Assembly: GCA_016792785.1 (NCBI GenBank)
Contig: JAEUML010000111.1
Coordinates: 1 to 32,039 of the forward strand
From: Alphaproteobacteria bacterium
Lineage (GTDB): Bacteria > Pseudomonadota > Alphaproteobacteria > Micropepsales > Micropepsaceae
DNA length: 32,039 nucleotides
Direction of reading: 5' to 3'
The notes below the pieces were generated by a model that was given only the letters and a program-made list of their open reading frames with translations, ran no database searches and was not told where the DNA came from. Made by a program: the position numbers and the translations under genes. Every line of letters begins with the position of its first letter. Position 1 is the first letter of the stretch. This document shows positions 26,666 through 28,603 of this stretch, piece by piece.

Positions 26666-28603
26666 TTAGGCGGCGAGATTCAGCGCGAAACGGAAGTGCC
26701 TCGGCGCCGCCACTGCGTCGGGTTTGCGGGTCTCGTCGAGTTCGAGCGCGGAGAGCATCAGGCGCGTGAACAAGGTGTCCCCGTGACGTTCATGGTTCAT
26801 TAACCCGATCAACGGGGCGACGGCGCGGTCGACCTCGACGCGGAAGGCGCGGGTATCGTCGCCGATGTCGATCGTACCTTCGGTGAGACCCAAGCCTGTC
26901 GAGGCGGAGACCAGGAACGAGATCGGCTTGCCGTGATCGAAGTCCTTCGTCATTTGGAACGTTTCGGCGCGGCGGCCGCCGTTGTGAGTCGTGTAGGCGA
27001 GGCGGTCGTGGTCGAAGGCCTGCGGGTTCAACAGGAAGTGGCCGAGGCGGAGTGAACCGCGGCCCCATTCGCGCCAGGCGAAGACCAGGTCGAATTCGAC
27101 GCGGGGCGCGGCGGCTGCGAAACGCAGACGCTTGAAGATGGGACCGAGCGGGGTTGCGACTTCGGTCTCGATCACAGCGTCGCCGGTCGCCTCGTCGCCG
27201 TAGAGGCGTGGCGCGACCCACTCAAGGTCGGTGATTTTCGGCACGCCCGGCGCCTCGAACACGCAATTGCCGGTGTACCAGTCGACCTGCAGGTCGATAA
27301 CGTCGAAGTGGCCGTGCAACAGCGAGACCAGCATCGGCGGGCGGTTGTCGTCGCGCGCGCGGATTTCTTGGATCGCAAGGCCGCGGCGGCGGTTCAGGAC
27401 GGCCGAGAGCGCGGGCGTTTCGATCTCGATCCATTTGTGTTCGATCTTGGCGGCGGGCGCACGCGACGGAACGGGAAGCGGTGCATGCGGCGCCGCCAGT
27501 ACGTGTTCGGCCGCTGCCAGGCGCTCGCGATAGCGTTGCCAACGCGTGTCGGTGATGTGGGTGCGGAAGTCGCTGGACCAGAGGTAACACAGCTCGCGCC
27601 AGGCGGCCGGGTCGGCGACGTTGCGGCAGACCAAGCCTTCGTAGATGCGTTGGCAGCTGGCGTTGATCGCGACGTCGTCGCGGCCCGAAACCGCCCAGCG
27701 GGTGATGTTGTATTTCCTCTGCTTCTTTACGGGGACGGGATAGGCGGCGCTCTGCAGGTCGAGCAGCTGGTTTGCGGCGGCGTTGTCGGTGAGGACGAGC
27801 GCGTCGGAGGGTTTCAGGAACTGCGTGCGGCCCGACGCAGCGAGGCGCGCCCAGGTATCGGCGACGATCTGCCATTCGCCGGTGTTCAGTGCTTCTTCCG
27901 TGGCGAGGCGCTTCGGGCGGAAGTCGAAGATCTCCGCATCATTGCTGTAGAGCGGCAGCAGGCGTGGTTCGCGGCCGCGCTGTGCCTCGACGAACGCCGT
28001 GTAGTCGCGCTGTTCGATGTCGCCGTGAGCGAGGCGCTGCAATTTCTGGAACGCCATCGTGTGGGTCCAGAGCAGCGCGATCTCGGAACCGTCGGCGCCT
28101 TTGGCGCGTTGCGGGTGATATTTGAGTTCGCTCGGCCATTCGGGATGGTGGGCGGCGACATTGTCCCAGTCCATCAGGATTGCGCGGTATCCCGCGTTGC
28201 GGTAGAGCGGCACGAGGCCCGACGCGTAAGCCTGTTCGTTGACGAGCGCGAGCGCCGGTTTGACGCCGAGCATGTGCTCGTAGACCGCGTGGCCCAGCGC
28301 GAGGTTCGCCTCGTTGACCCGGGCGGGCACAAGCGGTCCGATGATCTGGGCGTAGCCTGAGCCCACGAACTCGATCGCGCCTTCGCCGATCAGGCGGCGG
28401 AGTTCGGCGATCCAGGCGGGATCGACGGCGGCAATCGATTCGAGCGTGTATCCCGTCGCTTCGATCGCGATCGGCGCTCTGATGGCGGGCGGCAGGCGCA
28501 GAAGCGGCCAGTAGCAGCGCGCGACGACCTCGGGACGCTGTTCCTCTTCGATGGACGAGAAGGCGAGGTTCAAATGGAACAGCGCGAAGACGTTGAGCTT
28601 CAT
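26666..28603 (-). CDS. Glycoside hydrolase family 57-like protein
   Basis: GH57 enzymes act on alpha-glucans and related sugars with a (beta/alpha)7 barrel. The 645-residue product starts with the GH57-like [17 protein letters not shown] (His10), followed by [41 protein letters not shown] and [15 protein letters not shown]...ILMDWDN, which resembles the catalytic Glu region. The C-terminal half (from about 400) is beta-rich, as in the family's C-terminal domain. There is no signal peptide, so it is cytoplasmic. Overlaps with the ATP-grasp gene by 4 bases. In a glycan operon it may process, trim or transfer a sugar intermediate. The fold assignment is by pattern; the substrate is unknown. Confidence 0.7.

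What the first reader, a model, noticed from the sequence alone, without database searches (positions are those of the whole stretch)
26666..28603. Cytoplasmic GH57-like protein in a flagellin glycan operon
GH57 enzymes normally act on glucans. This one lacks an export signal and is coupled to the ATP-grasp gene and upstream of pseB. It could be a hydrolase that releases a free sugar from a UDP-sugar (the role PseG has in pseudaminic acid synthesis) or a transglycosylase.
Basis: inference. Interest (0 to 1): 0.5.

Follow-up and report, generated by a model that had tools for sequence, protein, structure and literature searches.

The report
GH57-type enzyme in flagellin sugar cluster
The window holds an intact starch-enzyme relative that keeps its two catalytic acids but travels, in many distant bacteria, with genes that make sialic-acid-like sugars for flagella, so it probably acts on one of those sugars and not on starch.

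Summary
Window 26666-28603 (-) encodes a 645-aa cytoplasmic GH57-fold protein, overlapping an ATP-grasp gene by 4 bp and lying 26 bp before pseB. Both catalytic acids are kept: Glu123 and Asp222 align with Glu123 and Asp214 of the Thermococcus litoralis 4-alpha-glucanotransferase, and are invariant in 45 of 45 aligned relatives and in 12 of 12 further genomes. Glucan-binding aromatics are missing, and ten basic residues are invariant, which suggests an anionic substrate. Relatives occur in many phyla, nearly always inside nonulosonic-acid clusters with PseB/PseC, PseI/NeuB, a PseF-PseG fusion, a TPP enzyme, an SDR, methyltransferases and an ATP-grasp ligase. This gene set matches Shewanella sfmABCDE, known to make a nonulosonic acid carrying a 236-264 Da side group. 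A PseG-like domain is present in the same genome and in 30 of 33 GH57-positive genomes checked, so the protein is not a PseG stand-in. Best reading: a retaining glycosidase, possibly a transglycosidase, serving one uncharacterised step in making a side-chain-decorated nonulosonic acid. Substrate and reaction are unproven. The family may be the 'alpha-galactosidase-related' GH57 group described in 2018, but one of its fingerprint positions does not fit.

The parts
26666..28603 (-). GH57-type enzyme, 645 aa; barrel plus helix bundle at residues 1-375, mutarotase-like beta-sandwich at residues about 380-645; Glu123 and Asp222 predicted catalytic
28600..29826 (-). ATP-grasp ligase with L-amino-acid-ligase C-terminal domain (LAL_C2), stop overlaps the GH57 start
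29826..30569 (-). SDR (FabG-like), 247 aa from the ATG at 30569
30566..31534 (-). transketolase C half (pyrimidine-binding and C-terminal domains)
31524..32039 (-). transketolase N half, N-terminal part cut by the contig end (listed ORF 31524-31997; matches profile 144-278 of 334)
25512..26639 (-). PseB, UDP-GlcNAc 4,6-dehydratase (inverting)
   Evidence: TIGR03589, 510.9 bits against cut-off 407.75
24337..25515 (-). PseC aminotransferase
   Evidence: TIGR03588, 445.8 bits against cut-off 423.5
23032..23919 (+). flagellin
21955..22782 (+). flagellin
19113..20894 (-). TPR protein with predicted GT-B-like C-terminal half, FlmG-like candidate flagellin glycosyltransferase (593 aa)
   Evidence: comparison with FlmG from passages of PMC7591256

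Best explanation
The protein is an active-looking, cytoplasmic, retaining glycosidase of the GH57 fold that has moved away from glucans and become a dedicated part of a pathway making a decorated nonulosonic acid (NulO), here for flagellin. PseB, PseC, the PseF-PseG fusion and PseI make and activate the NulO. The TPP enzyme (transketolase here), the SDR and a methyltransferase build a small polyhydroxy acid, and the ATP-grasp ligase couples it to the NulO amine that PseH would normally acetylate. A FlmG-like TPR transferase puts the product on flagellin. The GH57 enzyme uses Glu123 as nucleophile and Asp222 as acid/base on an anionic sugar intermediate of this pathway. The likeliest single step is hydrolytic release of a sugar building block, other than PseG's substrate, from a charged alpha-linked donor. 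SHOWN here: predicted fold, conserved catalytic residues, loss of glucan aromatics, conserved basic residues, gene context, presence of PseG, absence of a PseH over cut-off. INFERRED: side-chain chemistry, anionic substrate, hydrolysis over transfer.
For: Fold and catalytic pair; pair kept in 12 of 12 genomes outside the alignment. Glucan aromatics replaced (Trp120 to Leu, Trp221 to Arg229) and 10 of 43 invariant residues are K/R/H. Context over 55 loci: ATP-grasp 46, SDR 40, methyltransferase 35, PseG 25, TktC 24, PseB 22, PseC 22, TktN 21, NeuB/PseI 20, flagellin 18. In 289 genomes of the class, PseG in 7 of 9 GH57-positive against 58 of 280 negative (p=5e-4), flagellin in 9 of 9 against 150 of 280 (p=4e-3). 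PseG domains of GH57-positive clusters from many phyla group together: 4 label changes against a shuffled mean of 17.9, 0 of 500 shuffles as low. No PseH over cut-off. The same gene kinds in S. oneidensis sfmABCDE give a mono-N-acetyl NulO with a 236-264 Da group (PMC3765264).
Against: No activity, substrate or structure is known to me for any relative. Model coordinates could not be inspected, so the placing of basic residues near the active site rests on sequence motifs. The published sfm operon has no GH57 gene, and whether Shewanella has this family near sfm was not tested. Some clusters lack the transketolase, or lack any TPP enzyme or ATP-grasp within the stretch seen, so the link is to the NulO core rather than to one partner. 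GH57 relatives also occur in a Falkowbacteria bin and in Methanocalculus, so the pathway is not only for bacterial flagellin.
Confidence: 0.5

Rival explanations
1. Transglycosidase: it transfers a sugar onto the NulO or its side chain, or onto glycosylated flagellin in the cytoplasm, adding a second sugar without a nucleotide-sugar transferase.
For: The closest profile match with a solved structure is a transferase, the 4-alpha-glucanotransferase 1k1w, and the full-length architecture matches it.
Against: The aromatic subsites that hold glucan donors are not kept; a FlmG-like transferase is present in the window.
Confidence: 0.2
2. It replaces PseG as the UDP-sugar hydrolase of the pseudaminic-type pathway.
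For: The PseG and PseI matches in the own genome are below the NCBIfam cut-offs, so these enzymes are divergent; an enzyme freeing a sugar fits the operon.
Against: PseG-like domains in 30 of 33 GH57-positive genomes, G-x-G-H motif in 25 of 27, and co-inheritance of PseG with GH57: the two work side by side.
Confidence: 0.05
3. An ordinary glycogen or maltodextrin enzyme that lies by chance in the operon.
For: GH57 enzymes characterised so far act on alpha-glucans, apart from the alpha-galactosidase (PMC6037648, passages seen).
Against: Conserved linkage to NulO genes across phyla, co-inheritance with one type of PseG, loss of aromatic subsite residues and gain of basic ones.
Confidence: 0.05
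4. Other chemistry on the same barrel, for example a deacylase acting on the sugar amine, since the barrel also resembles polysaccharide deacetylases and ArnD.
For: Structural neighbours include deacetylases and ArnD at Z 18 to 22.5; invariant His349 and near-invariant His10 and Asn12 could form a metal-like site.
Against: The GH57 Glu and Asp are strictly kept; the GH57 matches score higher (Z about 34); the His-x-Asn motif is not a deacetylase metal motif that I recall.
Confidence: 0.12

Closest known systems
4-alpha-glucanotransferase of Thermococcus litoralis (GH57, PDB 1k1w/1k1x)
   Same: Barrel, helix bundle and C-terminal beta-sandwich; catalytic Glu123 and Asp214 align with Glu123 and Asp222 (catalytic roles from PMC5347038, passage)
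   Different: Remote sequence similarity (profile E=2.9e-9); aromatic Trp120 and Trp221 replaced; family-specific basic stretch around 289-308 and R-T-H at 347-349
'Alpha-galactosidase-related' GH57 group (PMC6037648; sections 9 and 11 and passages read)
   Same: Complete machinery with 99 residues between Glu126 and Asp225 in S. baltica, as Glu123-Asp222 here; similar length (640 aa, group mean 660); Thr and Lys/His at the end of conserved region 5, as T348-H349 here
   Different: The group is said to have Phe at fingerprint position 23; here that position is Ile (42 of 45) or Val (3 of 45). No sequence of the group could be compared directly; the sections and passages read do not mention gene context
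Shewanella oneidensis sfmABCDE flagellin modification operon (PMC3765264; abstract and sections 5, 11, 13 read, passages elsewhere)
   Same: NeuB-like, TPP enzyme, 3-oxoacyl-ACP-reductase-like SDR, SAM methyltransferase, ATP-grasp, with PseB/PseC
   Different: No GH57 gene in the published operon; here the TPP enzyme is mostly a split transketolase, an acetolactate-synthase type in 6 of 55 loci
Pseudaminic acid pathway with FlmG (Caulobacter; PMC7591256, passages read)
   Same: PseB, PseC, PseG, PseI, PseF, TPR-GT transferase of similar size (593 against 596 aa)
   Different: No PseH over cut-off; extra transketolase, SDR, ATP-grasp, methyltransferase, sulfotransferase and GH57 genes

Membership tests
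GH57 (fold and family) | Pfam PF03065 match over the curated cut-off | tested here: met
   47 bits against 21.2, residues 44-146
GH57 (fold and family) | Catalytic Glu in conserved region 3 | tested here: met
   E123, 45 of 45, aligned with 1k1w E123; 12 of 12 further genomes
GH57 (fold and family) | Catalytic Asp in conserved region 4 | tested here: met
   D222, 45 of 45, aligned with 1k1w D214; one search pattern contained this Asp, so the 12 of 12 genomes found by profile are the cleaner count
GH57 (fold and family) | Irregular barrel followed by a helix bundle | tested here: met
   Model pLDDT 92.3; GH57 amylopullulanase 9k7c Z 33.8 over 335 residues, rmsd 2.9
GH57 (fold and family) | Retaining mechanism | not testable with these tools
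   Needs enzyme assay
GH57 glucan-active specificities | Aromatic residue at the start of conserved region 3 (all specificities but alpha-amylase) | tested here: not met
   Position 120 is Leu 35, Tyr 5, Phe 3, Met 2 of 45; rule from PMC6037648
GH57 'alpha-galactosidase-related' group | Glu-Asp spacing and Thr-Lys/His end of conserved region 5 | tested here: met
   Spacing 99 as in S. baltica; T348 and H349 45 of 45; region 5 was placed by eye
GH57 'alpha-galactosidase-related' group | Phe at fingerprint position 23 | tested here: not met
   Ile 42, Val 3 of 45 at position 225
PseG (TIGR03590) | PseG profile match | tested here: not met
   No PseG match for P0001 at E up to 1; PseG lies elsewhere in the genome
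sfm-type NulO side-group pathway | NeuB, TPP enzyme, SDR, methyltransferase and ATP-grasp genes clustered | tested here: met
   All five kinds in one stretch in L061, L063, L064, L066, L068; in the own genome split over C36 and C25
sfm-type NulO side-group pathway | NulO with a 236-264 Da side group on flagellin | not testable with these tools
   Needs mass spectrometry

The most novel reading that the evidence does not exclude
A GH57 enzyme has been turned into a biosynthetic nonulosonic-acid enzyme: it releases or transfers a charged, non-glucan sugar so that a TPP enzyme, an SDR and an ATP-grasp ligase can decorate the NulO. This would be, as far as I know, the first biosynthetic, nucleotide- or NulO-directed role for GH57 and an unrecognised step in flagellin glycosylation shared by many phyla.
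Probability: 0.35. Interest if true: 0.72.

Novelty: new variant of a known kind. Interest (0 to 1): 0.5.

Why it matters
GH57 is treated as an alpha-glucan family. A widespread subgroup with an intact active site but without the usual glucan-binding aromatics, inherited together with one type of PseG, offers a concrete candidate enzyme for decorated nonulosonic acids, whose side-group chemistry was left open in the 2013 Shewanella flagellin paper. The operon gives a defined set of enzymes to reconstitute.

Tried and rejected
PseG replacement was tested by looking for PseG in GH57-positive genomes and rejected. A tight link to the ATP-grasp gene alone was considered: ATP-grasp is the direct upstream neighbour (under 150 bp) in 26 of 58 loci, but PseG (5), SDR (5), NeuB (2) and TktN (1) also are, 13 have none of the profiled genes within 150 bp and 6 none at all, so the coupling in the window is not the rule. 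A single-sequence search of solved structures gave nothing useful; only the profile did. PADLOC gave nothing. Literature searches for GH57 or family 57 with legionaminic acid, flagellin glycosylation or nonulosonic acid found no paper on this subject; SO_3268 gave none. An attempt to reach Shewanella through 369 genomes of the class of a Gammaproteobacteria locus gave 7 of 369 positives, all unnamed, so the Shewanella question stays open. A 2011 Shewanella paper (PMC3120886, passages only) names PseB and PseC there; the passages seen mention no GH57.

Rows dropped: L046 and L047 (cut or broken) were left out of alignment A1; L001 and L048-L060 repeat other loci or served other questions and were left out of the 55-locus count; 6 of 32 GH57-negative PseG stretches did not pass the profile and length filter for the tree, and the PseG profile used there was built from GH57-positive seeds. 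The GH57-negative PseG rows are all from one class, which limits that comparison. The tree is a quick one with long branches. The count of PseG (30 of 33) joins three calls: 7 of 9 by TIGR03590 plus G014 by A3; 16 of 20 plus G304 and G305 by A3 (G292 weak, not counted); 4 of 4 further genomes (G341, G435, G511, G540) by A3. G304, G435 and G511 gave rows to A3, so their match is by construction. G518, a fragment, was not tested for PseG.

Full report
The observation. ORF 26666-28603 on the minus strand encodes 645 residues with coding-like composition. Pfam finds Glyco_hydro_57 at E=2.8e-12; NCBIfam has no family over cut-off for it. It is the only GH57 match in the 3.96 Mb assembly. It has no hydrophobic N-terminus, overlaps the ATP-grasp gene by 4 bp, and pseB follows after 26 bp. 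PseB and PseC are over the NCBIfam equivalog cut-offs and two flagellins lie beyond them.

Catalytic residues. A search of one public collection gave 46 related loci. By their record titles they come from Alpha-, Beta- and Gammaproteobacteria, Deltaproteobacteria-type bins, Syntrophomonas, Nitrospirae, Bacteroidetes, Verrucomicrobia, Planctomycetota, Terriglobia, Anaerolineae and Falkowbacteria bins, and two archaeal records. An alignment of the window protein and 44 of these 46 (A1) has 43 invariant residues, among them Glu123 and Asp222. A profile of A1 finds the Thermococcus litoralis 4-alpha-glucanotransferase at E=2.9e-9, and the printed alignment pairs query E123 with its E123 and query D222 with its D214. 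These are its nucleophile and acid/base (PMC5347038, passage). One of the six search patterns contains Asp222, so the cleaner test is the profile search of other genomes: in 12 of 12 full-length copies from genomes outside A1, all 17 positions checked are identical (one further 106-residue fragment does not reach these positions).

Fold. The predicted model (pLDDT 92.3, pTM 0.92) matches GH57 amylopullulanases (Z about 34 over 335 residues of the barrel and bundle), the 4-alpha-glucanotransferase over its full length (Z 31.1, 518 aligned, rmsd 16.2, probably because domains are turned), and GH38 mannosidases over full length at lower Z; residues about 380-645 match galactose-mutarotase-like sandwiches at Z about 18-19.

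Substrate hints. In GH57, the start of conserved region 3 is nearly always aromatic except in alpha-amylases (PMC6037648); here position 120 is Leu in 35 of 45. Trp221 of the glucanotransferase corresponds to invariant Arg229, and Thr224 to invariant Arg232. Ten of 43 invariant residues are Lys, Arg or His: R190, R229, R232, K293, K294, K297, R302, R347, H349, R354. I infer a charged, non-glucan substrate.

Gene context. In 55 loci (window, 46, 8), counted by profiles at E<=1e-12, ATP-grasp occurs in 46, SDR 40, the methyltransferase cluster 35, PseG 25, transketolase C 24, PseB 22, PseC 22, transketolase N 21, NeuB/PseI 20, flagellin 18, acetolactate-synthase-like 6; many loci are short, so these are lower bounds. 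Representatives were named by NCBIfam and Pfam. In several related genomes the cluster is contiguous: flagellin, PseC, PseB, GH57, ATP-grasp, SDR, transketolase C and N, methyltransferase, sulfotransferase, methyltransferase on one strand, then PseI and PseF-PseG on the other, then a TPR protein (single members are missing or rearranged in some). In the own genome the window contig ends in transketolase N and contig C25 starts in the methyltransferase, so the two contigs look like halves of the same cluster.

Not a PseG stand-in. The own genome has a PseF-PseG fusion on C25; the PseG part scores 104.3 bits, below the cut-off of 153.55, and PseI is likewise below its cut-off. In 289 genomes of the class, GH57 relatives occur in 9; PseG (E<=1e-15) in 7 of these 9 against 58 of 280 others, flagellin in 9 of 9 against 150 of 280 (Fisher p=5e-4 and 4e-3). 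Joining, 30 of 33 GH57-positive genomes have a PseG-like domain. Three of those 33 (G304, G435, G511) contributed rows to the A3 profile, so their A3 match is by construction. PseG domains linked to GH57 form one region of the tree (26 of 27 on one side with 3 of 26 negatives, SH-aLRT 97; 4 changes against 17.9 in shuffles), and 25 of 27 keep the G-x-G-H motif (the two others lack the N-terminal part in the stretch cut out). GH57 and this PseG type are therefore inherited together and work side by side.

Link to known chemistry. Searching for PseH found only two weak matches (22.0 and 21.4 bits, cut-off 93.1). Shewanella oneidensis sfmABCDE consists of a NeuB-like protein, a TPP enzyme, an SDR, a methyltransferase and an ATP-grasp protein; its flagellin carries a mono-N-acetyl pseudaminic-type acid with an added C9H16O7, C10H18O7 or C11H20O7 (PMC3765264, abstract and sections 5, 11, 13). 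The same gene kinds surround the GH57 gene here. The ATP-grasp protein's nearest solved relative is an L-amino acid ligase (3vot, E=1.3e-19). I infer that the cassette builds a hydroxy-acid side group and couples it to the amine that PseH would acetylate, which would also explain the divergent PseG group. Similar acylated nonulosonic acids in Treponema denticola are recalled; I saw only that its flagellins carry a novel 450.2 Da glycan (PMC9481697, passage).

The transferase. The window's TPR protein (19113-20894, 593 aa) resembles SPINDLY and O-GlcNAc transferase in Foldseek and profile searches, though over the whole chain TM-scores are low and the profile matches lie in the TPR part, and it is built like Caulobacter FlmG (596 aa, TPR plus GT-B; PMC7591256 passages). 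So a flagellin glycosyltransferase is likely at hand and the GH57 protein need not be it.

Known or new. A 2018 survey names an uncharacterised 'alpha-galactosidase-related' GH57 group, including S. baltica (Glu126/Asp225, 640 aa) and C. kluyveri proteins (PMC6037648, sections 9 and 11). Spacing, length and the end of region 5 agree with the present family, but the stated Phe at position 23 does not (Ile or Val here). The sfm cluster was said to occur in one other species, S. baltica OS155 (PMC3765264), which makes identity plausible but untested. The three literature searches pairing GH57 or family 57 with legionaminic, nonulosonic or flagellin-glycosylation terms found no paper on the subject, within the open library only.

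Verdict. Real, well conserved, catalytically intact by sequence and pathway-bound; the exact reaction is unknown. I rate it a new variant of a known kind, of moderate interest.

Noticed in passing
window 31524-32039 and L051 (G000 contig C25) 2-5937: The window contig breaks inside transketolase N, and contig C25 begins in the next gene of the conserved cluster order; the two contigs look like neighbouring pieces of one cluster.
   Followed up: yes
window 19113-20894: FlmG-like TPR plus GT-B protein; its C-terminal half has no Pfam match (E up to 0.1).
   Followed up: yes
window 23990-24334: 114-aa ORF between the flagellins and pseC with no Pfam or NCBIfam match.
   Followed up: no
L051 1363-2928: Sulfotransferase-family gene between the two methyltransferases, conserved in several related clusters: the flagellin glycan may be sulfated.
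   Followed up: partly
L021 (Methanocalculus) and L025 (Aenigmatarchaeota bin): GH57 relatives with ATP-grasp and methyltransferase neighbours in archaeal records; transfer or, for the bin, misassignment is possible.
   Followed up: no
L044 (Falkowbacteria bin): GH57 relative with ATP-grasp, SDR, transketolase and methyltransferase genes in a 1.1 Mb genome of a group not known (recalled) for flagella, pointing to a glycan other than on flagellin.
   Followed up: no
window 671-2983: Large subunit of a molybdopterin dehydrogenase (glyceraldehyde or CO dehydrogenase type), below the equivalog cut-offs.
   Followed up: no
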